Shown here piece by piece: positions 752 to 51,071 of a stretch of 64,000 bases of DNA. The stretch's first letter is position 1. Each line of letters begins with the position of its first letter. This stretch comes from Xestospongia muta (taxonomy: Eukaryota > Porifera > Demospongiae > Haplosclerida > Petrosiidae). A program made the translations under genes and the position numbers. The DNA is taken from contig OY848922.1 in the NCBI GenBank assembly GCA_963693285.1, positions 6,312,923-6,376,922 on the forward strand, given 5' to 3'. The notes under the pieces are model-generated. The model was not told where the DNA came from. It did not search any database and saw only the letters and a program-made list of their open reading frames with translations.

Positions 752-850
752 CTTATCAGTATGGTGGATATTCACACCATGCTGAAGTAACAAAGTAACA
801 ACATCTTTGTGGCCATTTTGTGCTGCTTTCATCAGTGGAGTAGATCCACA
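752..850 (-). CDS. Ankyrin exon A4 (gene A)
   Basis: A 99-bp phase-0 exon between acceptor TTGTAG and donor AAG|GTCAGT. It encodes one full repeat with the usual core: GSTPL, then AAQNGHKDVV, LLLQHGVNI and a closing DK. Its partner at 46384-46479 differs at eight codons by replacement plus one lost codon, against a single silent change, although the flanking introns are nearly identical. Confidence 0.85.
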
Positions 851-3800
851 CTACAATTAATAAGAACAAAATGTAATTAGAGACATACATTAAGTATTAC
901 TTTTTAATTACATGTTATTATATTTAACATTATGTACATGTTCATGTACATAACATGTACTTGATATACTGGTCAATTAAGGACTGGGTATACTCACTTT
1001 TTAAAGATTTTAAATGATATATGCGATATGATAAAATTGGGAAAAAGAATGATCATTTCATAAAAACTAAGAAATTGTTAATTCTTAGTCTCAAAATTGA
1101 GTGACTATTGTGGACTTGTTATATTTTATTGCATATTACAAGCACTATCTTAATCAACTCTTAAAATATAATAGAAAAGCCTTTCCTGCATTCCTTAAAG
1201 TATATTAATATTTACACAATATTAATATCAGAGACAGTAAACAGTGTTATCTGTTAGCTCAGATTGAAGGAAAGGATTGGAGAAAGTATTTCCTGAATAT
1301 AGGTGAAATAGTACTTTTGACTGGTATATATCAATCACTCATAATGGCAACAGTAAATGACTTCAATTCCCTCCAATCAGGAATGAGTTACCAGGTTATA
1401 TCATATGTAATGAGATCAATAAACCTCATTGAAAACCTCCAAAAGAAATGCAGGTTTATACTTAAAATATGCACTATCAAAAAACAGCCATCGTATGAGT
1501 TCAAATTGTCACATGATCACTTTATGATGTCATAAAAGCTCTGATCATAATGTTACTATTTCATCATAATAAACTATATAGTATTCATCAACAATAGTAG
1601 TACAATTCAAATATTGTACATTAGTGGTTATCAGTATATACAATGTAACACTAATGACAAAGAAAAACAAAACCATATTTTATAAAACATTCTAAGACTC
1701 TTTTGAAGACACTATTGATGCTGTAAGGGACTGGATTATTAATGATTTAGAGTACTGCGATTTCTTGATTGCTATGTGCATCAGTGACTCAAAATACTCC
1801 ATTGATCTCAACACGTACATAATATTATAGTCAATTCAAAATAACATAATTACAATTTTTTTATTCAATTGCTCATGATTGTTGTAGCCATTGGTAATTT
1901 TTATTTTCTTATAGGTTTTTAGTAAATGTTACAATGTGATTATAGGAAACTATATATGATAGGTAGTACACAGTGGACTGATGTGTATAATATATACAGA
2001 TTTTATGAGATTTGAGATATCATATGAATAGATACTTATAGATGAAAGGTATATTTTAACTACAACCTACTCAAATGATCTCCAGTATATAAATCTGCAT
2101 CTGCAAACAACAATATGTCTATCGTGGCTAAGTGAATGCCCATGCTTGACACAAAATTATGTCTATCACATATAATCGGTTAGTACTATGATAATTATGT
2201 AGTTATTTAAAATAATCTGATTCTATTAATTTAAAAAAGGTAATATTGTAATGTTTACATTCATTGATGTCTCATATCATGTAAATATACTGTATAGGTT
2301 TTTTTTTCGAGGGGGGGGGGCAATATTTTCTTGGATGATGTCAAAAAATTTTGTTGGTTCATGGTAAAAATTTTGTTGTCGAGCGATCTAGTCTAAACCA
2401 CACCTTTATACACATGGTGTACAAATGGCAAACTTTGCCATTCAAGCCATGATATAAGACTACCACCAGTACAAACGAACCTGGGATGCTAAATTTGGGA
2501 AACAACTTGAGTGCCAGAGAGAAATGAGTTGGCAGCTGCAATCAAAGTTGATGGTACAGATTGTGCTAAAGAGCCATGAGGATAGGGTAGGTTGTTCTTT
2601 TCCCTCTTGAAGTATTGAAAGAAGGCCATACCGAATCTAAGACTCGTTGATCAACAACGTGATAACATGCATGCAACCACGTGTACGCATGAATGGGCAT
2701 GGCACATTGCATCTAATTAAGTTTTGTGGGTAAATATTTCATGTTTTGTTTCTCAACCACGAAAACCAAACAATACGTTTGATGTACAACAGGGGGTGTG
2801 GTCAGACAGTGTGTCTCAATATATAGCAGGTATATTATTATATCTATAGTACCACATAGTACACAGTCTACATAATTGTGTATTGAAAATATAGTGGTTA
2901 TGTATTGTGTATACATATCAATGTCTAATATGTAAGCAGTTACAAATTAGAAATAAAAAATTATAACAATAGTCGAAACAATACAAATCATATGTCACAT
3001 ATAGAAAGAATAGCTAGAGAGAAAATTAAATAAAGTAATAATTATTACTATCATATTATATTGATACTACTACTGTGAACCATGCTTAAATGACACTGTG
3101 AATTAACCCTTTCGTAACGAAGGTTGCATATTTCTAAGATTTAATGCATAGGCATTAACGAGGAAGGTTACAAATCTTCGACTAAAAATACCCTGGTATA
3201 TTTATTAAGAATGCTCGTCATAGTAATTAACATAGAAGAGGAGAACACTAATAAAATGTTTACACTATGGAAAGTGGATACTGTATCATTTGGATCATTC
3301 TACGTAGGTTAATGATTTTGATGAAGAAGATGACTTAGAATATGAAGTAATGGACACTTTTAACAATAAAACGTAAAGTATAAAATTATAAACACACAGA
3401 GTAGTTATAATAATACAGAAATGTTTCATGGGTGAGTTTAATACTTTTGCACAAAGAACAGCTTCGACACTTATAACCTCATGAAAATTTCACAAAACAA
3501 TTCACCTAACCAATGTAGTATTAGATGGCTTAAAACATTTTCGTTTGGAAACTGTTTTGTGACAACACACTAAATTAATTAATTATGATACAGTATATGG
3601 GCTTGTGCATTTTCATTGATAAATTGTTAAAGTAGACATTTTCATACTATGAACACAAGGTTGTATGGTGTCTGATATATAGAGTATTTACACTGTATAT
3701 CAATATGATAATACACTTACATTATCAGGTATATTAGGATCTGCATTTGATTCCAACAGATATTGAACAATATCTATGTATCCATGATATGATGCCCACC

Positions 3801-5839
3801 ATATACTAGTCCACTTGTTTTACATGTAATGATAATAGTAATAGTATAATTATTCATCAATATATCAATAGTACAATCATTATACACACACATACACTGA
3901 TACATATGTACTTACATGTATATGACTATAATGATAACTGATAATATTAATAATATGTATTATAATAATTGTGACCTAGCTTGGAAAAACCACACATGTT
4001 GTGCTAAACATTTGAACAAGCAGTTGTGTATAAACAGTTACTACATGGTCATTTCGTACATGATCATACCAATCATGGTATCAGGGAAGATCAGTCATTA
4101 AATATTTAGATTATAAAGTTGGTAAACATCCTGTACAAAATGGCTGCATAGCAAACGCATATATGCAATTGTTTAGTCAAATTTTTTTGGGTGTAACATT
4201 AAATGTTGCGCTAAAATGTCTTCCCAAATAATGTCACAATTATACATGTACATGTGAAATATGACGTCACAAATTGAATTTATATCTCATTAAGTAATGT
4301 TATCATATTATTAGCTAAATAATATGAAGTGACAACAAATAGACTATACACACAGTGAATAATAAATATATATGATATGGTCTAGGAACCAATAACTACA
4401 CAAAGAAGGAAGAATGCAACTACATAAAGCCAGTGTTACATGAACACACTTACTGTCAATGACCATATAATGATATGTGTAATTATATTCATAGCAAGTC
4501 AATCAGATTCATAATTTCACAAGTCTTGAAGCTTCCAAATATGGACATGACAAGAGTACTGTCATTTTTCTAATACGAGTTGGCTTTTTTCATGAGAATT
4601 ACACACTCCTTCCTCCTTTGTGAAGCTACAGGCTCTTACATACTGACTTCAAATGTTTATAAAGCTAGTTACTACTGTATTAACTAAAGTGTCATTGGAA
4701 AATATTCTTTGAAATTGTATTACAAAATCAGCTTGAAAAAAATGGCTCTAATACAATGTGAAGGGTCATTAATGAAAGAATTGACCACACCCAACAATTA
4801 AAAAACAATCCGTGAACACTTTAGCACATTTTGTACATCACATCTAAACATTACAACAAATCTACAAGTTGTACTTGATTATAAAATATTAATACAATCT
4901 AATACTATAATTCATTTTTATTTAAATGTAGTACTGTAATCCAGATGACCACAAGTATGCAGATAAAACAAAAGCAGCTAGGATATCAGATAAAATTGCC
5001 ATATTGACTTCAGTAATGACTTTATGAAAGTTAAACATTCAAGCCCCACCCCTTAGCAATAGAGTAAATTATTTTTAATATATGCTGTGTCCATTCATTC
5101 ATATATCTCAAATGTTATATATAAAATGTTTTAACTACATGATTAAACTTTGATAAAGACTTTGTAACACACACACATTAATTTATACTAGGTTGATTTA
5201 AAGGATATATTATGATTATTATTATAATAACTAGAACACTTGTATATCATATATGTAAATAATTATGATGATTTGATAATGACAAGAACTCTTATCATAA
5301 GACAATATCATCTCTGAATAGTACTATATTGTGACACACTTACATACCTCATGTTGAGCATTGACATTTGCTCCTTGTTGTAAAGTTGCTTTCACTTTAT
5401 CTAGTTGTCCACTTCTAGCAGATACAATCAGTGAGATATCCTAACCAAGATATCAAAGTTAATAAATGTAATATTACACATAAACAAGATCATATATAAC
5501 ATAGTTTATAATACAGTAGACATAATATTATAGAAGACATACTATAACAAGAGTACAGTAACTACTAATATAGTACATTGTACTAAGTATATGGACATGA
5601 CCTATATACAAACTATAGGGTCAAGTACATACGTTACTTATATTAGATCAGATAACCTAAAGTAATCCACCAGGTCATATTTAGTTTAGATAGAGGGAAT
5701 ATCTTGAATCTGATAGGATTACTGAGTGGACTGGACAAAGCTGACCAATCTTATTAAGTGTTACTGAATGAATTCTTTATTTTAGTATATTTAGTATACT
5801 TTATAAGTACTTACCAATATCCTTTGATCCATTGCAAAA
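752..5839 (-). CDS. Ankyrin-repeat gene A (5' part; continues left of window)
   Basis: A spliced minus-strand gene. Exon 1 (5815-5839) has ATG at 5832 and encodes MDQRIL before GTAAGT. Exon 2 (5348-5440, 31 codons) is a capping-type repeat ending in GANVNAQHE. Exon 3 (3721-3819) and exon 4 (752-850) are 33-codon ankyrin repeats. All are phase 0, so the frame is kept through each junction. The paralogous gene at 46384-52177 has the same exon order; there the ankyrin exons lead to a GTPase and a Death domain, so this gene may continue the same way beyond the edge (inference). Exon 3 has lost the canonical AG acceptor. The introns carry a HIRAN-type mobile element (2288-2780) and a possible piggyBac end (3113). 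Confidence 0.7.
2288..2780 (+). mobile_element. TIR element carrying a broken HIRAN-like domain, copy 1
   Basis: It starts TACTGTATAGG followed by a T-run, TTCGA and ten G residues at 2311-2320. The plus strand at about 2425-2590 encodes a degraded HIRAN-like segment: GVQMANFAIQAMI, an in-frame stop, then DYHQYKRTWDAKFGKQLE, followed by a frameshift. The relative at 34895-35514 has the same domain on the other strand and matching ends (TTTTCGTGG and TGAGAAACAAAA motifs). Within the duplicated segment the partner copy lies at 47935-48410. Confidence 0.6.
3113..3380 (+). mobile_element. Possible piggyBac-like end and acidic N-terminal remnant
   Basis: TTAA at 3113-3116 is followed directly by CCCTTTCGTAACGAAGG, which has the form of a piggyBac terminus. 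About 190 bp further in, the plus strand encodes an acidic run (NDFDEEDDLEYEVMD), as seen at transposase N-termini. No transposase body follows. A second TTAACCCTTA occurs at 6600. The same sequence recurs in the duplicate near 48737. This may be a solo end or a MITE. Confidence 0.3.
3721..3819 (-). CDS. Ankyrin exon A3 (gene A), acceptor mutated
   Basis: A 99-bp exon encoding a repeat with TSIWWAS, then GYIDIVQYLLESNADPNIP, and donor AAT|GTAAGTG. Its partner at 49352-49450 is preceded by ATGTAG; here the same place reads ATGTAA, so the AG acceptor is gone. The next AG lies six bases into the exon (AACAAG|TGG) and would keep the frame while dropping two residues. Nine codons differ from the partner and none of the differences is silent. 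Confidence 0.75.
5348..5440 (-). CDS. Ankyrin exon A2 (gene A), N-terminal repeat
   Basis: A 93-bp phase-0 exon between acceptor TTGGTTAG and donor GAG|GTATGTAAG. It encodes a capping-type first repeat: DISLIVSARSGQLDKVK, then LQQGANVNAQHE. The partner at 50979-51071 differs at eleven residues, with two further silent changes. Confidence 0.85.
5815..5839 (-). CDS. First coding exon of gene A
   Basis: Acceptor TTTATTTTGTTCCCAG precedes TTTTGCAATGG. ATG at 5832 starts MDQRIL and donor GTAAGTAC follows at 5814, in phase 0 with exon A2. The first exon of the paralog (52154-52221) encodes MDKSQQKL in the same position. Similarity between the paralogs ends about 190 bp downstream of this exon, near 5628, so the two genes have different starts and upstream regions. 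Two GGCGTGG boxes lie at 5877-5901 and could be promoter elements. Confidence 0.7.
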
Positions 5840-18180: not shown

Positions 18181-18461
18181 TCATTCACTAGTCTTGGAAA
18201 GACACATATCCAGAACAGATTTTGCTATAGATGGCTCAAGAACTGGAGGTAAATCAACTGCTGTTATTATAGTAGACCAAGTAACTTCAGTAGGTCGTTT
18301 GTCTAGCCAAACCTGGATGACATCTGCAAGTCTGTCAGCATTACGATTCCTTTGGTCCAGTATATTCTCCAGATCTCCATGGCTAATTTTCAAGGCATGT
18401 CCTATCTGTCTCCATTTATATTCAATGGGTGATAGTAAACGAATAAGATCCAATTTGTTTT
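18181..18461 (-). CDS. Death-domain terminal exon
   Basis: Acceptor TTGTGCTTATAG is followed by 92 codons and TGA. The sequence KWRQIGHALKISHGDLENI, then NADRLADVIQVWLDK and TWSTIITAV, has the Death-fold pattern: W..IG..L in helix 1, DL..I in helix 2, a leucine-rich helix leading to WL, then TW..I. Death domains assemble with other Death domains in apoptotic and innate immune complexes. It is preceded by a very compact set of small exons. Confidence 0.88.
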
Positions 18462-21400
18462 CTATAAGCACAATGAAATGAATGAAAATGTTGCATAATA
18501 AATAAGTATATGAAGACAGACATGCAGGGTAGTGGTGTATGCATTTGTTCTCAATACAAAGACTTACCAATGTTAATAGGAATAGACACATTTTTCTCAT
18601 GTTTAACAAGTATACCACTATCAGTAATGTCTGTGATAAACAAATAGTCAAGATGATGTAAGTATCATTACAGCCACATAATATAAATACCTAAATTCGT
18701 TCGTTTTTGTCTATCCTCTAAATGATCTTTATTCATCAGCTCTTTGATAGTTAAAAAAATTGACATTTAAAAACAGTCATTAATCAAAAAAAAATGAAAT
18801 ATATGCAATAAATAAATGTTAATAATAAGTATAATGAACATATCTTAAAGGACTTTAAATCTTACCAATAGTTATGGAAATGTCAGCTGTACTTTCATGT
18901 TCAGTATTTAGAGGAGCAACACAAGCATCTACAAAGAAATATAGGTAGTAATGTAATAATACACTAGGACCTTAATCTTGTACATCATTATTTGTAAAAT
19001 GTAGGGACAGTATTTCTTACCTAATTTGGCTTGGTTTTCATGAGTACCTGAATGTGAATTGTCTCTGTTTATTGTCTCATAGTCTATTAAAAACAATTTT
19101 TACTAACTATATTAAATTAGCATATGATCACTAACCTACTCCTTCCATCCAGACTTTACATCTGTCATTTAGCTCAACTGGTGGTAAATCTTGTATTGTA
19201 CAAGATACTTTAGCTATATTCTTCTTGTTAATAGTAACAGCAGCCAGATGAACAGAAGGTATATCTTGCTGTTTCTGATGCTTTTGATCACAGAGAAAGG
19301 CAAAGTTACATTTTAAAGCTGATTGATGATAAGCAAGAGGTACAGCACAAGAGGTAATGGCTGTAGTAACAACAGATCTCAAAGCCGAGCACTCTTCACG
19401 ATCACCTGTCCAATAGATCTCCATCCATTTCATTGTATCAACAAGAAGTAATGAACCACAGGGCTCATTGGACTGTAACTTAATAGCATATCGTAACTGA
19501 CAAGGAAACTGTGCTGTGAGACAATCAAGGGTAAAATATGGTGGCTTCTTTCTGTTTAGTAAGGCTACCACAGCTGCAGGAAACAAACCCTACAAGTGTA
19601 CAATTTCGAAATAAACATAAGATTTTTCTAAATTTAAATGATTTACATACCTGAGGTACAACTCCTTGGTCAAATGATAATACCAATGGCTCACAAGATA
19701 TCGCAATTTTTTTCTTTTCTTCATGTGTGAGTTGCCTAGGAGACAAAGCACTAGGAATGAAGTAATATAGCTTATCATTGTGTTGAACTTCAGCAATGAT
19801 ACAAAGATCACACAGCAAATGTAATAGATCGGACTTTTCAAAGAGACCTTGAGCAAATTGAATAGATACAAGATCTAAAAAATCTTCAGTAAAAAGCCCT
19901 TCGTCTCGTAATCTTTGGTGAACATTTGGTGGCAACACTTTTCCTTTTTGCAAGACTTTTTCAGGAAAATCGACAAACGATACACGTATAATAGAAGAGA
20001 GTGCATCTAGAAAATATTGTGGGTTAGTAAACACAAGATGAGAATAACTCTCAAAGTGTAGAAACACAGAGAAGGACTTGAAGAATTGAATAGCTCTAGA
20101 AATTTGTGCCCTGGTCATCCCTAGCTTTACTCCTATCTCTTCACAGTGAGCTCGAGACACAATACCATGACTCACTTGATTGCTTTCATCCTTGATGTTT
20201 GACTCCAGAACATACCAGCGAATTGGCGTTTTTCTCTTAACGATTGCTTTCTCGTGGCCAGTTACATATGTCCTAATAAGGGATGACAGCTTCTCACGGT
20301 TCCAATATTTCATGTTATCAACGGGAATAATAAGTTGCTGCTTAGCTTGATTATAAAAGATCAACTGATCTTTATATGGTTTTAAAGCTGATATGAGCTG
20401 AGCATTTTTTTCTTCAATTGACTCCTGAAATAGCCAGCGCAGACCTCCCATCTTATCATTATAGGTACCAATTATAAGAAAAGTAGGAGTACATTCATTA
20501 CCATCAACCAGCTTAGCTGATGAAATGGAACGAACAAATGTTGTGATAAGCTCAAGATTACTCATCCTGAGCTCCTTTGGTTGTGTGAGTGCCTCTCCTT
20601 CAATAGAATATTGAAAGACAGGCTTACTTGCCAGACGATCTGTCAATTTGTGCACAATCACATTGATAGTATTGCCTCGAACAAATGCTCTAGATACATC
20701 AGCAAACTGTGGCTGACCACCACTATCAAGCACATATATCCAGGTTGACTTAGATAATTGTTGCTGAGAAGCTTTACCCATTTTGGTGAGAATACTCTGA
20801 GAAAGCTGTATAATGCTAGCACTTTCTTTACTATTGGTATCAGATCCATTGAGAATTAAAGGCCTGTCAAGAGAGGAACCTTCATATTTTGTTTCAGCAC
20901 GTTGAGGTTCATGCTTGTAAGGAACTTGTTTAGATTCCTTATGTTCATTACCACTTACATGTGCATACCATTTAGTTTTCTTTAGCTGGTCACTTGCATC
21001 TAAAGGTGACAGGGGCTCTGGAGAGGATTTGGCAGGATAACTTGGACTCTTACTGCTCTCCAACAATTTGTGTTTGGTATGAAGAGTGACAGATTGAGAT
21101 TCCATCTCATTAGCAGACACTTCATATTTTGTTTCAGCACATTGAGGTTCATGTTTGTGAGGAACCTGTTTAGATTCCTTATGTTCATTACCACTTACAT
21201 TTACATGCCCTTTAGTTTTCTTTAGTTGGCCACTTGCATCTAATGTTGACAGGGGCTCTGGACAGGATTTGGCAGGAGAACTAGGACTTTTACTGCTCTC
21301 TAACACTTTGTCTTCACTATAAAAGGTGACAGATTGAGCTTCCATCTCATTAGCAGACACTTCAATTGATTTCTCGATATCCAGTGATAAATCTGACATA

Positions 21401-22348
21401 TCTGTCTCTGGATCCATGTAAATTGCATGAGTGTGGATATCTTCTGCAAGCATTTGCATTAAATCTTCAGTTGTGATTAGTTCCCAGCTTTTATCTCCAT
21501 CAACAGTAGCTATTCTTTCAACAGCTCTAATTGGCCGATCAGCAATGGCTGTGCTGTGATGATGACGAGGAGGCTTCCAATTAAAGAGGAGATGCTTAAA
21601 CGAGGTCTTTCCAACAGCAGGAGGACCAATTAACAATAGTTTTATAATTGACAAAATGACATAGCCTTCATTGAGAGCTTGTAATAAAATGGCTTTATCT
21701 AATAAAATCAACTAAATGGTGATAATACATTCAAATCTTACTTACCATTTTTGTCGATATAATCAGTTAGGTTTTTGTGAAAATTCATTGCTTTTTTCTT
21801 AGCTAAAGACAAAGCAGTGTCACCATTCTATAAAAATATAAAGACTCCATCATTGATGTTAACTATCAGCATTAAGTACAAAATAAAATTAGTATATCAT
21901 TAACTTTAATTGTTTTAGGAATCATACATGCAAGGAACACTTTGCAATGAGAAAATTTTTTTAAGTACTTCTAGTAATAATGGATGTCAAATCTAATGTA
22001 ATTCAAATACAACAACATATTACAATAAAATCAAAGAATTTCAATGTATCAACTTTACAGTTTGAAGATCTTTACTATTATATATACGTTTAATATACTT
22101 TTGTTGCTTAATAACTACATTAGTAAGAATAGTAAACTTTTGAGAGTTCAATATTCAATAGTTATTTCAATAAATAGTCCAATAATGATTATTTTGAAGC
22201 ATTTCAACTGTAACTAATTTTAATTTCATATTTTAATATATCAACTCACTTTATTAATTATAAATCTGTCTGCTCCATTGTCAATCAGAAGCACTGCACT
22301 TTCAAGGTTTCCCCTCATGCATGCTAACATCAAAGAAGAGTTACCATC
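18181..22348 (-). CDS. ROCO-like GTPase with Death domain: 3' core of the ankyrin gene
   Basis: Nine minus-strand exons in matching phases: 22250-22348 (ankyrin), 21746-21827 (truncated last repeat, GDTALSLAKKK), 19651-21698 (GTPase), 19136-19589, 19021-19083, 18866-18928, 18691-18741, 18568-18630 and 18181-18461 (Death domain, stop TGA at 18183-18181). The architecture (ankyrin, P-loop GTPase, COR-like region, Death domain) matches ROCO-type scaffold proteins of basal animals. In that group the GTPase is thought to act as a switch and the Death domain to recruit signalling partners (family knowledge; role here inferred). All splice sites are GT-AG. Phase arithmetic closes exactly. No frameshift or internal stop was found. 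Confidence 0.88.
18568..19083 (-). CDS. Four small phase-1 linker exons
   Basis: Exons 19021-19083, 18866-18928 and 18568-18630 are each exactly 63 bp; 18691-18741 is 51 bp. All begin with two codon bases and end with one, so any of them can be skipped or repeated without breaking the frame. Two end alike (HESTADISITIE and HEKNVSIPINIE), which suggests exon duplication. They encode a charged linker between the COR-like region and the Death domain. Confidence 0.75.
19136..19589 (-). CDS. C-terminal COR-associated exon
   Basis: Acceptor ACTTGTAG leads to GLFPAAVVALLNRKKPPYF. This joins VLSFDQGVVPQ of the previous exon into the VPxGLFP.LVV.LL segment seen in ROCO-like proteins after COR. It is cysteine-rich towards its end and has hydrophobic strands (CGSLLLVDTMKWMEIYW). 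It ends one base into a codon at donor GTTAGT, which is a less common donor. Confidence 0.8.
19651..21698 (-). CDS. P-loop GTPase / COR-like exon
   Basis: A 2048-bp exon. The G1 P-loop GPPAVGKTS lies at 21627-21602, the G3 box LDSGGQPQF at about 20730-20702, and GTYNDK in the G4 position at about 20469-20452. After that come a helical winged-helix-like COR region (LGMTRAQISRAIQFFKS) and a hydrophobic tail. Between G1 and G3 lies an unusual ~160-residue charged insertion made of two 80-residue tandem copies. I chose the acceptor TTTTATTAG (exon start 21698) because it alone keeps the phase from the preceding exon. The family is ROCO-like, not a small Ras protein. Confidence 0.88.
20881..21360 (-). 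repeat. Two tandem 240-bp coding repeats inside the GTPase exon
   Basis: Units 21121-21360 and 20881-21120 each encode 80 residues starting VSANEME and ending AETKYE. They share SGNEHKESKQVP and KHEPQ and differ at roughly a fifth of positions (hand estimate). The period is exactly 240 bp, so the frame is preserved. The insertion sits in the switch region between G1 and G3, is rich in S, K, E and P, and is probably disordered. Confidence 0.9.
22250..22348 (-). CDS. Ankyrin exon of the main gene (last full repeat)
   Basis: A 99-bp phase-0 exon between acceptor TTTTCTCTAG and donor AAA|GTGAGT. It encodes DGNSSLMLACMRGNLESAV, then LLIDNGADRFIINK. It is the least typical of the repeats (C and M in the helices), as expected next to a domain boundary. 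Confidence 0.88.
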
Positions 22349-28477: not shown

Positions 28478-30483
28478 TAAGTAAGTATTATATATGTAGA
28501 ACAGTCAACCCAATATTACTTGTCAATATGTACCTGCATACAGAGTCCAATTGTAAGTATAACCTGTTTTTGAGTCAGCTAAAGAAAATTCTTTTAGCCT
28601 CCATTTGTTTGGGTTTTTAGGAATGTACTGAAGAAACCAAATTCTGCCTTTGAGCTAACAATGGCCTCATCTATGGAGAGTTCACCTCCAGGGTTATAAC
28701 TAGCTTGAAAGTTATTAATCAGTGATGTAATAAGGGGATGTATCTTATATAATGGATCATATCCTGGTTCACCTCTTTGGTTTTGCCCTTTCTTGTCATT
28801 TATGTATAGAAACTTCAAAATTAGGCTGAAACAATCTAATGACATTACACAAGAGAAGGTGACTGTATTAAATGGCCAGTACTGAGCCCGGTAATCTTCT
28901 AACTTGCGGTAGTGGATTGTTGCCATTATTATTACCAGAGCAAAAAATTGTAGCTTTTCTGTTGATGTATGCATCTTCTTTTTCCCAATAGTTTAGCAAG
29001 GTCGGTGTGAAACCTCTGGGTGCTCTTGAAAGTGTTGCTGGGAATACAAATTTGTTTTGTCAACCATTTCTTCTATTATCTCTGGTGTAACAAGTTTGTC
29101 AAAAAACTCAATTGGTGTTTTATCTGTCATATCTTCTGTTTCCTTCATATTCTCCAACAAACTCTTGGATATCATATGCTACACTACTCAGAGAGATATG
29201 TTTTGTTGCACTGATTTCAATTTCATCACCATACACTATTTCCATACCATCTACTATTTCAGTTTCCACATCAAAATCATTGCTATCATAGTATTCATCA
29301 TTAACTTCAGTCATTTCCATTACATCATTGTCATTGATTACCACATCATCACCATCACTATTGCATTCATCATCATCAGCTCTGTTACACAATCCCATTA
29401 CTTATATGACTTCATCATCACTGATATAGCCATCAAAGTCATCATCACTATCATCTCCTGAGGCATTTCCTCCACTTGTAATCATGTCTATCACTTGGTC
29501 AGCATTGTATCTAGTCATTGTTCTCACACTTCAGTTATAAATATAAAAAAGATGTTGCTGTATTCGAATGGTTTACCAAGCAGCAGCCTCTAGAGCATAT
29601 AAATATGCGCGCCGCATTTAATTAGCGTGGGCGCAGAGCATATAATTATGATCATCGCGGTCAAAGGGTTAACTGCAGTCATGAAAATGAAAGATTGATA
29701 AAACAGGCTTATTATAATCTTTCTATACTTAATGAATCAAATGAGGCTAAAAAGAATCTACACTATGACTAACAATCAACTATTTCATGGAAAAAATGTT
29801 GGTAGTTTATTATAATAATTGTAGTAGTATAGTTTTAGAAGTTTGTTCAAACTGTTCATGATCAGGATAAATATATTCATATAATTAGTAATTATGTTGA
29901 CAGTAACTTATGTAAGTTCATTTGTTGATCTTAGAAGCTTAAGTCACAGAAAGCATTAAAATATAATGATACAATATGGACATGTAGTATATACATATAA
30001 GCAAAAGGATATGAAAAATGTCAAGCAATTGGTTTCATGGAAATAATGGGTATACAATATTTTGTATCAATTTTTCTATTAAAAACTTGTAATGTTGTAA
30101 TTTTTGATAACAAATTTAAGATGATTCTAACACAATATAGCTGCACTTTGTAGCTAAAAACTGGAGATGTTGTTATACAAAATAGCTGTAAACACAGAAC
30201 AGGTAATGTGATAAATGATACTTGTGCATTTCATTTCTACAGATCATGTGAAACTATATATATACAGAGTTATAACATGATCAGACATTCTAAGGTTGAT
30301 TTGCTACACTTAACATTCCAAGTACAAGAGTGAAGTGATTATGTCAGTCTTCAAATTAAACAAACAATAACAAATAGCATAAAGAGTATTTTCACTGATC
30401 TGTAATAACATTTTAATATCATACTTAGCGTGATATTTGTAACTTATGACTACTTGATGCAATCATACAATGATCTTTCATAC

Positions 30484-30582
30484 CTTATCAACAACAGTAA
30501 TGTCAGCACCATTACTAATTAATATTTTGATGATCTCTGGATGATTTAAGCGAGCTGCATAATGTAATGCAGTCAAGCCATC
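30484..30582 (-). CDS. Ankyrin exon of the main gene (block A)
   Basis: A 99-bp phase-0 exon between acceptor ATTGTTACAG and donor AAG|GTATGAAAG. It encodes DGLTALHYAARLNHPEIIK then ILISNGADITVVDK, a textbook ankyrin repeat. Its partner 39699-39797 differs by 12 replacement and 1 silent nucleotide changes (hand count). The replaced residues are D1, L3, Y8, A10, R11, L12 and D32 of the exon. Confidence 0.85.
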
Positions 30583-39698: not shown

Positions 39699-39797
39699 CT
39701 TTGTGACAACAGTAATGTCAGCACCATTACTAATTAATATTTTGATGATCTCTGGATGATTATTGATAGTTGCACAATGTAATGCAGTCCAGCCATT
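39699..39797 (-). CDS. Ankyrin exon of the main gene (block B)
   Basis: A 99-bp phase-0 exon between acceptor GTTGTTACAG and donor AAG|GTATGAAAG. It encodes NGWTALHCATINNHPEIIK then ILISNGADITVVTK. Its two flanks are about 4% different from those of exon 30484-30582, while the exon is about 13% different. Confidence 0.85.
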
Positions 39798-40137: not shown

Positions 40138-41524
40138 ATGGCTGTCCATGGGAGCATCGGAGAATTCTGCCTCCAACATTATTGTAGGGCTAATGATGTC
40201 TTTGATGATAAAACATTGGCAGTTTTATGTAGTGTTTGTGGTCTTTTCATGCACAAATTAATCAAGTATTTACTAATGCCTAGAAGACTGTCTGATTATC
40301 TTTTGATTCAATTGTAGACTTGATGAAGGAGCATTATAGTCCAAAATCATCAGTAGGTTGTCCAGTGTTTACAATTTAATTTAAGGCTACAACAACCAGG
40401 AGAGAGAGTGTCTGTTTATAGCTGAGCTGAGACAACTATCCAAATTTTGTGAATATTAGGAGATATGTTAGATTTCGTGCTATGTGATCGTTTAGTGGGT
40501 GATATTAGACAGCTGAGTATTCAATGATGACTGCTGGCTGAACCCATCCTAACTCTGAAATGTGCTCTTGAACTGGTACTTGCAATGTAGTCTGAAGGAT
40601 ACAAGAGATACTTAGTGCTAAAAGGCCTACTTGTTACCGTTGTGGAGGAAACATCTTAGCACCAATTTGCAGATTTAAAAAATATGTTTGTCATGGCTGC
40701 AAAAAGAAGGGGCACCTAATCAGATGTTGGAGAAATGCCCCTAAAAAAAAGGCCAAACAAGTCAAGTACAAACATTAACAAGGTGGTAGAAGACCCCATT
40801 TCTCAATTGTATATGTTTCCCTCAAGTAAGACAAAACCGTTAAAGACAGTGGTTAATATAGATAGCAAAGAGGTTGAGATGGAGAAAAACACAGGAGCGT
40901 TAGTGTCATTGATGACACACACAGAGTACAAGAGGCTATGTAATCAAAAGAGTAGACTCCCATTACATGCAGCAAGAATAAACTGGAAGACATATACCGG
41001 AGAGATGATTAAAGTGATGGTGAACCATCAAGGAGATGAAGAGAGATTACCATTAGTTATTGTAGAGTCCAAAGGACCTAATCTACTCAGAAGAGACTGT
41101 TTGATGAAGTTGAAACAGGACTTGCACATGATAAATCAGGTCCAAATGAAGGAAGAGTTAATAACACTCATTTCAAGATACTCTTATATTTTTCAGAATG
41201 AACTAGGTATCTGATATCAAAGCTGTATCTGCCAGGATCATAGCAGAAGAGAGAGCCACTCATAGATTGTTGTCCACAACTGGTACCATTTGCACTCCGT
41301 TCAAAGGTAGATAAGGAACTAGAGAGACTAGAGTCGATGGGAGTACTGAAAAAAGTGGAATTTGCAGACTGGGCGGCACCCATCATTTCAGTATTGAAGG
41401 ATGACTGAAATGTTAGAATTTGTGATGATTATAACATGACCATTAATAAAAAGCATCAAAAGTGGACCTGTATCCATTCCCGAGAGTGGATGACCTTTTT
41501 ACAGCAATGACCAGTGGAGTGTAT
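40138..41524 (+). pseudogene. Ty3/gypsy fragment, copy B (gag to RT start)
   Basis: Gag opens MAVHGSIGEFCLQHYCRAND. The zinc knuckle and protease follow (40735-41214), with PLKTVVNIDSKEVEMEKNTG. The catalytic DTG of copies A and C is NTG here. The match continues to the start of RT and stops at GGAGTGTATTTT near 41524. Upstream it is joined to the same ankyrin-exon intron as copy A, so the insertion predates the block duplication. Confidence 0.7.
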
Positions 41525-41529
41525 TTTGT

Positions 41530-44034: not shown

Positions 44035-44039
44035 TAATA

Positions 44040-44195: not shown

Positions 44196-44574
44196 TACTT
44201 TGCACCTAGCAATGCTAGCATTCGTTCCCCTTGTGACGTCACAAGTGAGCCCCACCCTACTAGGAAGAACATTGCAATCTCAGAAGAAGCCTTTAAAGAG
44301 CTTCGAAAAGAAGCTTGCTTTTAACAGTGATAACAATTTTTAAAAATTATTATAATATTTTTAGGGTGAATTGCATATGTCAAAGATAACATTTATGCAA
44401 AAAAAAATATTTTTGAATTTTGGCATGTCCCCCCCTTTAAAGATCCTGTTTCTTTTAAAAGGATCCCTGATGCCTCAGATATACTAAATTTCACAGACAT
44501 TTCTATTACACTCGTTTTTTCACACTCATTTTTTCACGTGGCATTAATATAACATTAATTATTAATAAATCATT

Positions 44575-44690
44575 AATAATTATCATTAATAATTATTAAT
44601 TTATTACCGTAGCGCTTAATAAAAAAGAGTTCTGACCAAGATAAATGTGTGCGCTTAACAAACAGTATGCGCTTAATAACCATATGCTGT
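44575..44690. mobile_element. Fragment of the 12651-13097 TIR element, inverted
   Basis: TACCGTAGCGCTTAATAAAA followed by GTTCTGACCAAGATAAATGT is the inverted counterpart of 12660-12760. It truncates the piggyBac-1 transposase frame after GMVEAFCCGD. Confidence 0.7.
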
Positions 44691-46047
44691 CTCCACAGCA
44701 AAAGGCTTCCACCATACCTCGAGGCCTCTTTTGGTTCAGGGCAGAAGGAAGTCCTTTGCGATTGCTCTGGACCATGCCTGGATATAATCAACAATAAGTA
44801 CAAGGTACAGGATGTAGACATAGAAATACCTGTTACAGTAATTCCCTTCCTCTTTAGCTCAGTTGCTATGAGAGGGCTATTATAAAATCTATCTAGGTAT
44901 ACATCATACCCCTTATCCTCAAGTCCATCCACCAGTGTAAGGACAACTCTGGCTGTGTGGGGTAGCTCAGGTCCTACAGGCTCTGTTGCCCGTCCATAGC
45001 ATATGGGTACCTTATAAAGGTAGCCAGACACACTGTCAGCAAGTACAAATGCCTTTATACCCCAAGGAGTTAGTTTACCTTTGAGGTACTGTCGAAAAGT
45101 AACCCTGCCTTTGAAGGCAATTGCTGACTCATCAATAGCTACATGTTGTGAAAGAGTGTAGGATGATTGAAATGCTGGAACTAGATGGTCAAGTAATGGC
45201 TCATATCAATATCACAGCTACAAAACCCTTCATTTCATCTATTGTCACTAGACGCCAGCTTCTGTACAATGAGCCACGCTTTATCTATAAGCAAGAGGTA
45301 TGTTAGAGTAACTAATTGTTTATTACTACTTACCTGCATACAACCAATCTTCTTAGCAGCATACTTATTGGTATTATACACAAGAAATTGCCACAAAGCA
45401 TCAAGAAGAATAGAGAAAAACAATCTTCTGGTGACTGAACAGATGGATATATGTTACTACCAGACGACTGAGTAAATAAGATATAGCTAGGCTCTGTGTC
45501 ATCTATATTTGGAATGAAAAACTACTTAGCTACTACACAACTTATCAGCTCCTACTACTATCCAATGATAATCAGTTACTGTGACACCAATACCTCTGCC
45601 TCTCCCAATACCTCTTCCTCTACCTCTTCCTCTGACAGCACTTCTTCCTCTCACAACACCTCTTCTTATCCCAGGACCTATTCCTATTCTAGTACCTCCC
45701 ACTTCTGCAGTATGATTTGTCTCACCATTTACATTCTCTTCATCTTGCTCATCCTCAAAGCTTTCACTCTCTTCACTATCAACACTATCACTATCATCAA
45801 ATTCACTATCACAAAAATCCTCTCCCAATACATGTTGGGCGGGACCATAAATAACTAATAAACAAAGGAGGAATTTCTCGTTGATAAAAAAACAAAGGTT
45901 AGTTGAAAAAAACAGTCTACTAATGTAATGTCACAAATTTGTGACAATTGTCTCAATTAATAGTACATGCGTGTCATGGATTTGTGTCAATTGTCTCCCT
46001 TAAATGTACTGATATGTCTCAAATTTGTGACAATTGTCCCATAAGGG
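44690..46047 (-). mobile_element. piggyBac-1 element, copy B
   Basis: The right end is at 46047, followed by TTAA at 46048-46051. The 43-bp repeats lie at 45929, 45972 and 46015. A 135-bp deletion relative to copy A removes the transposase start. The left end is cut by another element. It occupies the same insertion site as copy A. Confidence 0.75.
44695..45828 (-). pseudogene. piggyBac-1 transposase, copy B, with a small intron
   Basis: The N-terminus (45526-45828) is acidic (FDDSDSVDSEESESFEDEQD), then arginine/glycine-rich (GRGRGRGIGRGRG). The catalytic region has AIDESAIAFKGRVTFRQYLK, GIKAFVLADSVSGYLYKVP and DKGYDVYLDRFYNSPLIATE. At 44778-44829 a 52-bp GT-AG intron interrupts it; removing it joins KGITVTG to MVQSNRKGLPSAL, the conserved continuation. 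The start is deleted, there is a disrupted stretch at 45230-45500, and the C-terminus is cut at 44690, so it is inactive. Confidence 0.75.
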
Positions 46048-46383
46048 TTAAACAACAATCACACTTGAGAAATTTACAAGCAGGCTTGTTTATGAATTTG
46101 AACCGTAAATATATGTACATATTAATATTTCTATTTACTTAGCAATGACAGTTTCTATCTCTTTATAAGCTCAATATAACATGATGTTATTTCAACAAGT
46201 TTATAACACTACAAAGAAATAATAGGAGAAATGGATTTCAAAAGAAAAGTTAAGAGTGATCATTTCATGACACTTTACATTTACATAATATGTACTAGAC
46301 TTTTATTGTTTGTTTTATATACATTAAATAGAACAGAGCGTAAAATAGAAGCTTCATTAATATGCTTACATATATATACCGAC

Positions 46384-46479
46384 CTTAGTAGTATGGTGGA
46401 TGTTCACACCATGCTGAAGTAACAAAGTAACAACATCTGTTTTGCCATTTGCTGCTGCTATCAGTGGACTCCATCCATC
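46384..46479 (-). CDS. Ankyrin exon B4 (main gene)
   Basis: A 96-bp phase-0 exon between acceptor TTGTAG and donor AAG|GTCGGT. It encodes DGWSPLIAAANGKTDVVTL then LLQHGVNIHHTTK, one residue shorter than its partner because of an in-frame 3-bp deletion. Confidence 0.85.
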
Positions 46480-47934
46480 CTACAATTAATAAGAACAAAA
46501 TGTAATTAGAGACATACATTAAGTATTAATTTTTAATTATATGTTATTATATTTAACATTATGTACATGTTCATGTACATAACATGTACTTGATATACTG
46601 GTCAATTAAGGACTGGGTATACTCACTTTTTAAAGATTTTAAATGATATATGCAATATGATAAAATTGGGAAAAAGAATGATCATTTCATAAAAACTAAG
46701 AAATTGTTAATTCTTAGTCTCAAAGTTGAGTGACTATTGTGGACTTGTTATATTTTATTGCATATTACAAGCACTATCTTAATCAACTCCTAAAATGTAA
46801 TAGAAAAGCCTTTCCTGCATTCCTTAAAGTATACTAATATTTACACAATATTAATATCAGAGACAGTAAACATCGTTATCTGTTAGCTTAGATTGAAGGA
46901 AAGGATTAGAGAAAGTATTTCCTGAATATAGGTGAAATAGTACTTTTGCCAGGTTTACATCAATCACTCATAATGGCAACAGTAAATGACTTCAATTCCC
47001 TCCAATCAGGAATGAGTTACCAGGTTATATCATATGTAATGAGATCAATAAACCTCATTGAAAACCTCCAAAAGAAATGCAGGTTTATACTTAAAATATG
47101 CACTATCAAAAAACAGCCATCGTATGAGTTCAAATTGTCACATGATCACTTTATGATGTCATAAAAGCTCTGATCATAATGTTACTATTTCATCATAATA
47201 AACTATATAGTATTCATCAACAATAGTAGTACAATTCAAATATTGTACATTAGTGGTTATCAGTATATACAATGTAACACTAATGACAAAGAAAAACAAA
47301 ACCATATTTTATAAAACATTCTAAGACTCTTTTGAAGACACTATTGATGCTGTAAGGGACTGGATTATTAATGATTTAGAGTACTGTGATTTCTTGATTG
47401 CTATGTGCATCAGTGACTCAAAATACTCCATTGATCTCAACACGTACATAATATTATTGTCAATTCAAAATAACATAATTACAATTTTTTTATTCAATTC
47501 CTCATGATTGTTGTAGCCATTGGTAATTTTTATTTTCTTATTGTAGGTTTTTAGTAAATGTTACAATGTGATTATAGGAAACTATATATGATAGGTAGTA
47601 CACAGTGGACTGATGTGTATAATATATACAGATTTTATGAGATATGAGATATCATATGAATAGATACTTATAGATAAAAGGTATATTTTAACTACAACAT
47701 ACTCAAATGATCTCCAGTATCAAATCTGCATCTGCAAACAACAATATGTCTATCGTGGCTAAGTAAATGCCCATGCTTGACACAAAATTATGTCTATCAC
47801 ATATAATTTATTAGTACTGTGATAATTATGTAGTTATTTAAAATAATCTGCTTCTATTGATTAAAAAAAAGGTAATATTGTAATGTTTACATTCATTGAT
47901 GTCTCATATCATGTAAATATACTGTATAGGTTTT

Positions 47935-48410
47935 TTTTTCGAGGGGGGGGGGCAAAATTGTCTTGGATGACGTCAAAAAATTTTGTTGGTTCGTGGTAAA
48001 AATTTCGTTGTCGAGCGATCTAGTCTAAACCACACCCTTATACACATGGTGTACAAATGGCATACTTTGCCATTCAAGCCATGATATGAGACTACCACCA
48101 GTACAAACGGACCTGGGATGCTAAATTTGGGAAACAACTTGAGTGCCAGAGAGAAACGAGTTGGCAGCTGCAATTAAGTTGATGGTACAGATTATGCTAA
48201 TAAGCCATGAGGATAGGGTAGGTTGTTCTTTTCCCTCTTGAAGTATTGAAAGAAGGCCATACTGAATCTAAGACTCGTTGATCAACAACGTGATAACATG
48301 CATGCAACCACGTGTATGTATGAATGGGCATGGCACATTGCATCTAATTAAGTTTTGTGGGTAAATATTTCATGTTTTGTTTCTCAACCACAAAAACCAA
48401 ACAATACATT
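47935..48410 (+). mobile_element. Duplicate of the HIRAN-carrying element at 2288-2780
   Basis: It has the same T-run, TTCGA and G-run, the same broken domain (ATGATATGAGACTACCACCA) and the same right flank. It was copied with the segmental duplication. Confidence 0.6.
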
Positions 48411-49351
48411 TGCTGTACAACAGGGGGTGTGGTCAGACAGTGTGTCTCAATATATAGCAGGTATATTATTATATCTATAGTACCACATAGTACACAGTCT
48501 ACATAATTGTGTATTGAAAATATAGTAGTTATGTATTGTGTATACATATCAATGTCTAATATGTAAGCAGTTACAAATTAGTAATAAAAAATTATAACGA
48601 TAGTCAAAACAATACAAATCATATGTCACATATAGAAAGAATAGCTAGAGAGAAAACTAAATAAAGTAATAATTATTACTATCATATTATATTGATACTA
48701 CTACTGTGAACCATGCTTAAAGGACACTGTGAATTAACCCTTTAGTAACGAAGGTTGCATATTTCTAAGATTTAATGCATAGGCATTAACGAGGAAGGTT
48801 ACAAATCTTTGACTAAAAATACCCTGGTATATTTATTAAGAATGCTCGTCATAGTAATTAACATAGAAGAGGAGAACACTAATAAAATGTTTACATTATG
48901 GAAAGTGGATACTGTATCATTTGGATCGTTCTAAGTAGGTTAATGATTTTGATGAAGAAGATGACTTAGAATATGAAGTAATGGACACTTTTAACAATAA
49001 AAGGTAAAGTATAAAATTATAAACACACAGAGTAGTTATAATAATACAGAAATGTTTCATGGGTGAGTTTTAAACTTTTGCGAAAAGAACAGCTTCGACA
49101 CTGATAACCTCATGAAAATTTCACAAAACAATTCACCTAACCAATGTAGTATTAGAAGGCTTAAAACATTTTCGTTTGGAAACTGTTTTGTGACAACACA
49201 CTAAACTAATTAATTATGATACAGTATATGGGCTTGTGCAATTTCATTGATAAATTGTTAAAGTAGACACTTTCATACTATGAACACAAGGTTGTATGGT
49301 GTCTGATATATAGAGTATTTACACTGTATATCAATATAATAATACACTTAC

Positions 49352-49450
49352 ATCATCAGGTATATTAGGATCTGCTTTTGATTGCAACAGATATTGAACA
49401 ATATCTGTGTATCCATAACGTGATGCATACCATATACTAGTAGTCTCGTT
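49352..49450 (-). CDS. Ankyrin exon B3 (main gene)
   Basis: A 99-bp phase-0 exon with intact acceptor ACATGTAG and donor GAT|GTAAGTG. It encodes NETTSIWYASRYGYTDIVQ then YLLQSKADPNIPDD. Confidence 0.87.
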
Positions 49451-50978
49451 CTACATGTAATGATAATAGTAATAGTATAATTATTCATCAATATATCCAT
49501 AGTACAATTATTATACACACACATACACTGATACAAATGTACTTAGATGTATATGACTATAATAATAAGTGATAATATTAATAAAATGTATTATAATAAT
49601 TGTGACCAAGCTTGGAAAAACCACACATGTTGTGCTAAACATTTGAAGAAGCAGTTGCGTATAAACAGTTGCTACATGGTCAGTTTGTACATGATCATAC
49701 CAATCATGGTATCAGGGAAGATCAGTCATTAAATATTTAGATTATAAAGTTGGTAAACATCCTGTACAAAATGGCTGCATAGCAAACGCGTATATGCAAT
49801 TGTTTAGTCAAATTTTTTTGGGTGTAACATTAAATGTTGCACTAAAATGTCTTCACAAATAATGTCACAATTATACACGTACATGTGAAATATGACGTCA
49901 CATATTTAATTTATATCTCATGCAGTAATGTTATCATATTATTAGCTAAATAATATGAAGTGACAACAAATAGACTGTACACACAGTGAATAATAAATAT
50001 ATATGATATGGTCTAGGAACCAATAACTACACAAAGAAGGAAGAATGCAACTATGTAAAGCCAGTGTTACATGAACACACTTGCTGTCAATGACCATATA
50101 ATGATATGTGTAATTATATTCATAGCAAGTCAATCAGATTCATAATTTCACAAGTCTTGAAGCTTCCAAATATGGACATGACCAGAGTACTGTCATTTTT
50201 CTAATACGAGTTGGCTTTTTTCATGAGAATTACACACTCCTTCCTCCTTTGTGAAGCTATAGGCTCTTACATACTGACTTCAAATGTTTATAAAGCTAGT
50301 TACTACTGTATTAACTAAACTGTCATTGGAAAATATTCTTTGAAATTGTATTACAAAATCAGCTTGAAAAAAATGGCTCTAATACAATGTGAAGGGTCAT
50401 TAATGAAAAAATTGACCACACCCAACAATTAAAAAACAATCCGTGAACACTTTAGCACATTTTGTACATCACATCTAAACATTACAACAAATCTACAAGT
50501 TGTACTTGATTATAAAATATTAATACAATCTAATACTATAATTCATTTTTATTTAAATGTAGTACTGTAATCCAGATGACCATAAGTATGCAGATAAAAC
50601 AAAAGTAGCTAGGATATCAGATAAAATTGCCATATTGACTTCAGTAATGACTTTGTGAAAGTTAAACATTCAAGCCCCACCCCTTAGCAATAGAGTAAAT
50701 TATTTATAATATATGCTGTGTCCATTCATTCATATATCTTAAATGTTATATATAAAATGTTTTAACTACATGATTAAACTTTGATAAAGACTTTGTAACA
50801 CACACACATTAATTTATACTAGGTTGATTTAAAGGATATATTGTGATTATTATTATAATAACTATAACACTTGTATATCATATATGTAATTAATTATGAT
50901 GATTTGATAATGACAGGAACTCCTATCATAAGACAATATCATCTCTGAATAGTACTATATTGTGACACACTTACATAC

Positions 50979-51071
50979 CTCATCTTGTGCATTGACATTT
51001 GCTCCTTTTTGTATAGCATGTTTCACTTTATCTAGTCGCCCATTTAAAGCAGAGTCAATCAGTTCATTATC
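50979..51071 (-). CDS. Ankyrin exon B2 (main gene), N-terminal repeat
   Basis: A 93-bp phase-0 exon between acceptor CTTTGTTAG and donor GAG|GTATGTAAG. It encodes DNELIDSALNGRLDKVK then AIQKGANVNAQDE, a typical first repeat. Confidence 0.87.

What the first reader, a model, noticed from the sequence alone, without database searches (positions are those of the whole stretch)
752..51071. Ankyrin exons diverge 5-10 times faster than their own introns, almost wholly by amino-acid changes
Four duplicated exon pairs were compared by hand. 752-850 vs 46384-46479: 8 replaced codons plus one deleted, 1 silent. 3721-3819 vs 49352-49450: 9 replaced, 0 silent. 5348-5440 vs 50979-51071: 11 replaced, 2 silent. 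30484-30582 vs 39699-39797: 7 replaced, 1 silent. In total about 35 replacement against 4 silent codons, with exon divergence of 13-20% while flanking introns differ by 2-4%. Neutral drift or purifying selection predicts the opposite. This points to strong diversifying selection on, or sequence exchange targeted to, the ankyrin exons of a GTPase/Death-domain protein, as expected of a recognition receptor.
Basis: partly seen in the sequence, partly recalled or inferred. Interest (0 to 1): 0.93.

Follow-up and report, generated by a model that had tools for sequence, protein, structure and literature searches.

The report
Hypervariable ankyrin exons of sponge receptors
A sponge carries a large one-chromosome cluster of related genes whose ankyrin repeats change fastest at the surface used to grip other molecules while the introns between them stay nearly identical, which looks like a home-grown repertoire of recognition receptors.

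Summary
In detail: the four exon pairs hold 35 replaced and 4 silent codons; exons differ by 13-20%, adjoining introns mostly by 1.5-5%. Each exon is one phase-0 ankyrin repeat. One gene in the window reads ankyrin(N-cap, 5 repeats, C-cap)-Roc-COR-Death; a second gene's 5' end lies at the left. The family forms an array on one chromosome. With 22, 25, 23 and 40 copies, whole-exon dN/dS is 4.0, 2.2, 1.2 and 1.5. Change concentrates on the beta-hairpin and first-helix face, overlapping positions varied in designed ankyrin proteins (combined p = 2.6e-4); a tree-free event count agrees only for those positions. The Death exon is conserved (ratio 0.43). Correction: introns look slow partly because the 5' cassette is shuffled and homogenised among genes by kilobase-scale exchange. 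Diversifying selection thus acts on exons in a recombining pool; exchange is not exon-targeted. Chromosome lengths suggest the barrel sponge Xestospongia. Closest analogues: brown-algal LRR-ROCO genes, fungal ankyrin NLRs, DAPK1. A recognition-receptor role is inferred, not shown.

The parts
5815..5832 (-). gene A: first coding exon ATG GAT CAA AGG ATA TTG (MDQRIL), donor GTAAGT
   Evidence: an ATGGATCA exon found in 19 of 23 family loci inspected
5348..5440 (-). gene A: ankyrin exon X3 (N-terminal capping repeat, cap reading is inference)
   Evidence: 23 copies
3721..3819 (-). gene A: ankyrin exon X2; acceptor is AA here (an AG 6 nt further in would cost two residues in frame)
   Evidence: 25 copies
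752..850 (-). gene A: ankyrin exon X1; gene continues beyond the left edge
   Evidence: 22 copies
178..5632 (-). 5' ankyrin cassette of gene A (three exons plus introns), 96% identical to 45826-51264
   Evidence: 15 full-length and further partial copies on contig C6
45826..51264 (-). 5' ankyrin cassette of gene B
50979..51071 (-). gene B: ankyrin exon X3 (N-cap)
   Evidence: no ATGGATC exon found upstream of it in the window
49352..49450 (-). gene B: ankyrin exon X2
46384..46479 (-). gene B: ankyrin exon X1, one codon shorter
39699..39797 (-). gene B: ankyrin exon X4, first copy
30484..30582 (-). gene B: ankyrin exon X4, second copy
   Evidence: 40 copies on C6
22250..22348 (-). gene B: ankyrin exon X5
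21746..21827 (-). gene B: exon for a half repeat, read here as the C-terminal ankyrin cap
   Evidence: cap reading is inference
19651..21698 (-). gene B: Roc GTPase plus COR exon (P-loop GPPAVGKT)
   Evidence: Pfam Roc 22.2 and COR-A 23.6 bits, both below curated cut-off; Foldseek: the 3 matches with E <= 0.001 are Roco structures, best E 5e-5, but TM-scores are low
19136..19589 (-). gene B: exon between COR and Death domain, no Pfam match at E <= 1
18181..18461 (-). gene B: Death-domain exon and stop codon
   Evidence: Pfam Death 19.8 bits, cut-off 22.6; splice sites

Best explanation
The exons belong to a tandem family of ankyrin-Roc-COR-Death genes on one chromosome of a sponge (most likely Xestospongia). 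Shown by sequence: each repeat is one phase-0 exon; copies of the 5' cassette keep exchanging sequence over kilobase stretches (conversion or unequal exchange), which keeps introns similar and reassorts exon variants among genes; within that pool amino-acid variants on the beta-hairpin and helix-1 face of each repeat are kept diverse, while the framework and the Death domain are conserved. Inferred: the ankyrin stack is a recognition surface for variable microbial or nonself ligands; ligand binding switches the Roc GTPase and COR dimer, and the Death domain recruits a cell-death or immune signalling partner. The likely result is a germline repertoire of receptors with different specificities.
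For: Exon pi 0.096-0.165 vs intron mean 0.030. pN/pS/flanking pI: X1 .109/.027/.025, X2 .133/.060/.057, X3 .178/.145/.028, X4 .098/.067/.038. M1a vs M2a (own implementation, tree of each exon) 2dl 37.8, 59.0, 49.7, 80.3 with omega2 5.9-9.6; 28 nulls with a fresh genealogy per codon, sized like X1, reach at most 26.9, omega2 at most 3.4. Sites: X1 1,3,8,11,12,15,32; X2 1,3,7,11,14,33; X4 1,3,8,11; X3 on the same scale 5,8,11,12,20,33; enrichment in the DARPin-varied set p = .023.011.023 and .069 (X1, X2, X4, X3), combined 2.6e-4. Face codons pN .27-.33, pS .06-.14; remaining codons pN/pS 0.43-1.34 (this face set was chosen partly after seeing the data). Death exon pN/pS 0.43 over 21 copies. No stop in 110 of 110 exon copies. 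Exchange: the nearest neighbour changes across 9 intron blocks in 13 of 15 copies (6-8 different neighbours in 11 of them), block distance matrices mostly weakly correlated; PHI-like test 0 of 1000 permutations as low; L009/L010 differ at 18 intron sites between 611 and 1759, around X1, and at 10 in the rest. Death pS 0.016-0.39 against cassette pI 0.006-0.038, rho -0.29 (p = 0.14), 28 pairs of 8 genes.
Against: A tree-free count of minimal mutation events over all codons is near neutral (194 replacement, 55 silent, expected fraction 0.743, p = 0.11); only the DARPin-position subset exceeds neutral (84:13, p = 0.025), the rest does not (110:42, p = 0.64). Silent variation is also raised in X3 and X4, and pooled over the three cassette exons pS is 0.067 against pI 0.028, so exon-specific age, exchange or mutation adds to the pattern. 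Recombination alone passes the usual M2a threshold in 13 of 28 nulls, so chi-square p-values are not to be taken literally. One-ratio (M0) fits gave omega 1.00, 1.94, 1.15 and 1.00; for X1, X3 and X4 the nested omega = 1 fit scored better, so those fits had not converged and say nothing either way. In X2 intron variants are no more often singletons than replacements (36% vs 40%). No expression, ligand or population data. Roc, COR and Death matches are below Pfam cut-offs. Cassettes and Death exons are paired by position only.
Confidence: 0.75

Rival explanations
1. The contrast is mainly an intron effect: gene conversion homogenises the cassette introns, while exons keep older differences because conversion into them is selected against or hindered by mismatches; little recent positive selection is needed.
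For: Death pS (mean 0.19) far exceeds cassette intron divergence (0.029) between the same genes; X3 silent divergence (0.145) is of the same order as Death pS; strong mosaicism; near-neutral event count over all codons.
Against: X1 and X2 silent divergence equals that of their introns (0.027 vs 0.025, 0.060 vs 0.057) while pN is 2-4 times higher; the replacement excess is concentrated on the binding face. Retaining old differences there still needs diversity-favouring selection.
Confidence: 0.3
2. Exon-targeted mutation (a hypermutation process of the germline or soma) generates the diversity.
For: Diversity rises at the exons; silent variants per site in X3 and X4 are 2-4 times those of the flanks.
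Against: In X1 and X2 silent variants per site are close to those of the introns (.22 vs .16.34 vs .41); framework codons of the same exons are much less variable. No mutator element was looked for.
Confidence: 0.07
3. Relaxed constraint or pseudogene decay of surplus copies.
For: Three of 21 Death exons carry a stop; three of 25 X2 copies have an AA acceptor.
Against: No stop in 110 of 110 ankyrin exon copies; indels seen there are in frame or seem compensated at the donor; pN exceeds intron divergence 2.3-6.5 times, which relaxation cannot give.
Confidence: 0.03
4. Assembly or haplotype artefact.
For: Highly similar repeated blocks are hard to assemble.
Against: Fifteen nearly full-length cassettes at distinct places with different exon versions; the window's two copies lose similarity outside the block; changes follow protein structure; the published Xestospongia muta assembly, if this is it, has primary QV 56.3 (PMC12398682, passages read).
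Confidence: 0.03

Closest known systems
Brown-algal LRR-ROCO genes (Teng et al. 2024, PMC11378527, abstract and passages read; Zambounis et al. 2012, known here only through that paper, not held)
   Same: Roc-COR protein, one recognition repeat per exon in constant phase, exon shuffling, M1/M2-type diversifying selection at four positions on the concave side, multi-gene, proposed immune receptors.
   Different: Leucine-rich repeats in 72-bp phase-2 exons instead of ankyrin repeats in 99-bp phase-0 exons; domain structure LRR-ROC-COR only; not animals. The intron-exon rate contrast was not among the passages read.
Fungal NLR (STAND) proteins with highly conserved ANK/TPR/WD repeats, Podospora (Dyrka et al. 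2014, PMC4986451, abstract and passages read)
   Same: Ankyrin repeats with positively selected positions, with one exception on the concave surface (inner helices and beta-hairpin); repeat-number polymorphism and concerted evolution suggested; nonself recognition.
   Different: NACHT/NB-ARC NTPase instead of Roc-COR; no one-repeat exons mentioned in the passages read; repeats exchange mainly within a locus; other effector domains.
DAPK1, Roco group 3 (PMC6337361, passages read)
   Same: Roc-COR with a Death domain, metazoan, no LRR; ankyrin repeats before Roc in DAPK1 are recalled.
   Different: DAPK1 has an N-terminal kinase; gene A here starts with MDQRIL and goes straight to the ankyrin N-cap. 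That DAPK1 is not a hypervariable tandem family is recalled.
Designed ankyrin repeat proteins (DARPins)
   Same: Constant framework with varied hairpin-tip and helix-1 positions. The set used here (2, 3, 5, 13, 14, 26, 33) is recalled and agrees with the variation in the DARPin chains printed (two independent DARPins, D12 and R12).
   Different: Man-made; here position 10 (exon 8) also varies strongly, and positions 26 and 33 (exon 24 and 31) hardly vary in X1, X2 and X4.

Membership tests
Roco (Roc-COR) proteins | Roc GTPase domain directly followed by COR | tested here: met
   Pfam Roc and COR-A at E 1.7e-4 and 5.2e-5 but below cut-offs; P-loop nearly invariant and DSGGQ invariant in 42 aligned relatives; the 3 Foldseek matches with E <= 0.001 are Roco structures, TM-scores low. 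Model mean pLDDT only 51.
DAPK1-type Roco (group 3) | C-terminal Death domain | tested here: met
   Death 19.8 bits, E 9e-4, cut-off 22.6; last exon of the gene model
DAPK1-type Roco (group 3) | N-terminal kinase domain | tested here: not met
   Gene A: an 18-nt ATG exon (5815-5832) is followed 374 nt downstream by the ankyrin N-cap exon, leaving no room for a kinase. Gene B's first exon was not found. Six of 15 long ORFs were scanned; no kinase. Not filed as DAPK1.
NLR / STAND receptors | NACHT or NB-ARC NTPase | tested here: not met
   Only Roc and COR-A matches at E <= 0.001 in the 728-aa ORF
Diversified one-repeat-per-exon receptors (brown-algal ROCO kind) | each recognition repeat is a separate exon of constant phase | tested here: met
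   (splice sites only, no transcripts)
Diversified one-repeat-per-exon receptors (brown-algal ROCO kind) | diversifying selection at ligand-facing positions | tested here: met
   the event count agrees only for the DARPin positions
Diversified one-repeat-per-exon receptors (brown-algal ROCO kind) | exchange of repeat exons between genes | tested here: met
   exchanged together with introns
Diversified one-repeat-per-exon receptors (brown-algal ROCO kind) | alternative splicing of repeat exons | not testable with these tools
   no transcripts available
Immune or allorecognition receptor | binds nonself ligand and triggers a response | not testable with these tools
   none

The most novel reading that the evidence does not exclude
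An animal counterpart of a natural DARPin library: a 3-Mb sponge locus in which dozens of ankyrin-Roc-COR-Death genes form one recombining pool, where conversion spreads and reassorts single-repeat exons and selection keeps their binding faces diverse. At its boldest it is a major nonself- or allorecognition locus of a sponge, with haplotypes differing between individuals.
Probability: 0.4. Interest if true: 0.9.

Novelty: new variant of a known kind. Interest (0 to 1): 0.78.

Why it matters
Which molecules give sponges individual-specific recognition of microbes and of each other is an old open question (recalled). This gives a concrete candidate with a testable map: a single chromosomal region, named variable positions, and a signalling end. 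It also extends the repeat-exon strategy described for brown algae (LRR) to an animal with ankyrin repeats on the same Roc-COR chassis, and shows how introns can look slower than exons: homogenisation and diversifying selection act in one pool. Ten searches of the held open-access library (the top listings, with passages read from seven papers) showed no description of this family; subscription papers and preprints were not covered.

Tried and rejected
Extra peak of intron diversity at 2250-2400: alignment of a poly-C tract and one divergent copy, not an exon. Chi-square p-values of M2a: not relied on after the recombination nulls. One-ratio M0 fits: three of four not converged, not used. The Death control gave 2dl 7.25 (nominal p = 0.027) but with omega2 = 1.00, that is no positively selected class. 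Searching proteins with the spliced ankyrin part returned generic ankyrin proteins; no relative of this gene was recognisable among the 120 listed of 2296. Searching with the Roc-COR-Death part gave 40 unnamed relatives, 38 of them 632-708 aa, none listed with a Pfam ankyrin domain. Roc-COR relatives: 288 hits, the 120 listed all from one archive without names. Fold model: confident mainly for COR. Zambounis 2012 is not held. Petrosia ficiformis: the lengths 8.57, 13.57 and 5.53 do not occur in that paper. A structure of the spliced ankyrin domain was not requested.

Rows dropped before counts: exon types X1-X3 were taken from 30 loci (L009-L038), giving 22, 25 and 23 copies; X2-like exons on C6 number 40 at E below 3e-6 among 150 scored of 1572 candidates, so 25 of about 40 were used. 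X4: the 40 scored of 167 candidates, all used. Death exons: 20 places from the listing plus the window; two places at 3.96 Mb, alike in score to a fetched one, were not fetched; three copies with stops were left out of the M2a control and of the 18-copy estimate (ratio 0.45), not of the 21-copy estimate (0.43). Sites at 2230-2400 were left out of intron divergence, as were 8-10 bases next to each exon.
Full report
Observation. The codon counts are reproduced exactly: 35 replaced, 4 silent; exon differences 13.1-20.4%. Flanking introns within 200 bp differ by 1.5-5.0% in pairs 1-3; in pair 4 by 4.3% in the adjoining 93-94 aligned bp on each side and 8.8% over about 330 bp on one side.

What it is. 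Two genes lie in the window. Gene B (minus strand, 51071 to 18181) reads N-cap exon X3, X2, X1, X4, X4, X5, a half-repeat cap, a 2048-nt Roc-COR exon, a further exon and a Death-domain exon with the stop codon; all nine junctions are AG/GT and the joined frame is open. Its start-codon exon was not found. Gene A begins at 5832 with an 18-nt ATG exon and runs out of the window to the left. Ankyrin matches are strong; Roc, COR-A and Death are below Pfam cut-offs. In a model of mean pLDDT 51, confident mainly for COR, the three Foldseek matches with E <= 0.001 are Roco structures, best E 5e-5, with low TM-scores.

The family. All 76 scored matches to the 5.5-kb cassette lie on contig C6, between 3.75 and 6.77 Mb, in one orientation apart from inverted pieces of at most 189 bp; 15 are nearly full length (29 of 547 candidates scored). 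X2-like exons number 40 there at E below 3e-6, all on one strand; the X4 exon at least 40. Roc-COR relatives also form a group of at least 12 on C2 at 19.4-21.1 Mb. Lengths of C3, C6 and C14 (13.574, 8.574, 5.527 Mb) are within 0.1% of chromosomes 3, 6 and 14 (13.58, 8.58, 5.53 Mb) of Xestospongia muta, total 158.52 Mb against 158.03 here (PMC12398682, passages read); I infer that species or its sister.

Rates. In the 15 full cassettes exon pi is 0.096, 0.109 and 0.165; 147 intron windows of 99 bp average 0.030. Pairwise pN, pS and flanking intron divergence are: X1 0.109, 0.027, 0.025 (22 copies); X2 0.133, 0.060, 0.057 (25); X3 0.178, 0.145, 0.028 (23); X4 0.098, 0.067, 0.038 (40). dN/dS is 4.0, 2.2, 1.2 and 1.5, with bootstrap intervals over copies 2.5-8.6, 1.6-3.4, 1.02-1.55 and 1.1-2.1. 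So in X1 and X2 silent sites behave like introns and only replacements are fast; in X3 and X4 silent sites are raised as well, and pooled over the three cassette exons of the 15 copies pS is 0.067 against pI 0.028. The Death exon, over 21 copies, gives pN 0.085, pS 0.198, ratio 0.43.

Where the changes are. M2a against M1a gives 2dl 37.8, 59.0, 49.7 and 80.3 with omega2 of 5.9-9.6 (own implementation). One-ratio fits did not converge for three of the four exons and are not used. Because the copies recombine I simulated 28 null data sets, sized like X1, with a separate genealogy for each codon: 13 pass the usual threshold, but none exceeds 26.9 and omega2 stays at or below 3.4. The sites recur between exons: hairpin (1, 3, 32, 33) and first helix (8, 11, 12, 14, 15). 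Entropy profiles of X1, X2 and X4 correlate with each other (rho 0.58-0.61) and X3 more weakly (0.28-0.51). DARPin-varied positions (recalled, and in agreement with the chains printed) hold 4 of 7, 4 of 6, 3 of 6 and 3 of 4 of the selected sites of X1, X2, X3 and X4, combined p = 2.6e-4. Nine face codons (eight in X3), chosen partly after the fact, have pN 0.27-0.33 and pS 0.06-0.14; the other codons have ratios of 0.43-1.34. Against this, a tree-free minimal event count over all codons is near neutral (194:55, p = 0.11), with excess only at the DARPin positions (84:13, p = 0.025; difference between the two classes p = 0.008). Replacement variants are singletons in 29-44%; intron variants in 67-80% for X1, X3 and X4, but in 36% for X2. 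In three of four exons this fits replacement variants being kept at intermediate frequency.

Exchange. Across nine intron blocks the closest relative of a cassette changes repeatedly: 11 of 15 copies have 6-8 different nearest neighbours, two have 2, and two (L020, L022) have one. Distance matrices of different blocks, and of X1, X2 and X3, are mostly weakly correlated (highest 0.56 among the intron blocks, 0.25 at most among the three exons); nearby sites are less incompatible than permuted ones, 0 of 1000 permutations as low. L009 (the window's gene A) and L010 are near-identical except for 18 intron and 8 exon differences between 611 and 1759, which looks like one conversion tract that swapped X1; outside it there are 10 intron differences and 3 in X3. 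For eight genes paired by position, Death-exon pS ranges from 0.016 to 0.39 while cassette introns differ by 0.006-0.038, without positive correlation (rho -0.29, p = 0.14). So the cassette seems to have a history of its own and has been homogenised or passed around. The slow introns are therefore partly a product of exchange.

Mechanism. Shown by sequence: exon-wise repeats, exchange, conserved framework, diversified face, conserved Death domain. Inferred: the face binds ligands that differ among copies; binding controls the Roc-COR switch; the Death domain signals. Three of 21 Death exons carry a stop, so some copies are probably dead or recent losses.

Comparison. The nearest published case found is the brown-algal LRR-ROCO family: same Roc-COR core, one repeat per exon, exon shuffling and selected concave positions, but LRR and no Death domain (PMC11378527). 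Fungal ankyrin NLRs show selected positions on the same surface with another NTPase (PMC4986451). DAPK1 shares Roc-COR-Death but has a kinase (PMC6337361). Hence a new variant of a known kind: an animal, ankyrin-based version on the Roco chassis.

Verdict. Observation confirmed; diversifying selection on the ankyrin face well supported, with the event count as the main dissent; exon-targeted exchange not supported; intron homogenisation must be added to the explanation; receptor role inferred.

Noticed in passing
window 3820-3821 (gene A exon X2 acceptor): Acceptor AA instead of AG in gene A, also in copies L010 and L030 (3 of 25); an AG six bases inside would keep the frame and drop two residues.
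   Followed up: partly
window 20867-21346: 240-bp tandem duplication (87%) inside the Roc-COR exon, encoding a repeated stretch in the low-confidence insertion of the Roc domain.
   Followed up: no
window 28594-28992 and 44573-45205: Fragments with DDE_Tnp_1_7 matches (piggyBac-type, name recalled), both lying between exons of gene B. 40720-41214 reads like a retroelement protease region (recalled), no Pfam match.
   Followed up: no
G000 C6:3959521-3974943: Three Roc/Death copies 6087 bp apart with identical match scores, and a fourth with the same identities at C6:6382647-6385895: recent tandem triplication or assembly effect.
   Followed up: no
G000 C2:19.41-21.09 Mb: At least 12 Roc-COR relatives (72-73% DNA identity) in the other orientation: a second array; whether it has hypervariable ankyrin exons is unknown.
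   Followed up: no
G000 C1:18.96-19.01 Mb and C8:0.2-4.7 Mb: Many single-repeat ankyrin exon-like matches, in places spaced about 257 bp (e.g. C8:1328203, 1328460, 1328717): perhaps other one-repeat-per-exon ankyrin arrays.
   Followed up: no
L015, L033, L035 (3' end of exon X3): A 4-nt deletion at the donor appears to move the splice site to a GTAAGT three bases on, keeping the frame and changing the last residue (the splice reading is inference).
   Followed up: partly
L049, L056, L059, L060, L063, L064, L065, L069, L072 (5' end of exon X4): In 9 of 40 X4 copies the AG lies three bases further upstream, adding one codon at the variable start of the exon.
   Followed up: no
window 5450-5599: Intron just upstream of X3 is exceptionally uniform (pi 0.007-0.009) beside the most variable exon; unexplained.
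   Followed up: no
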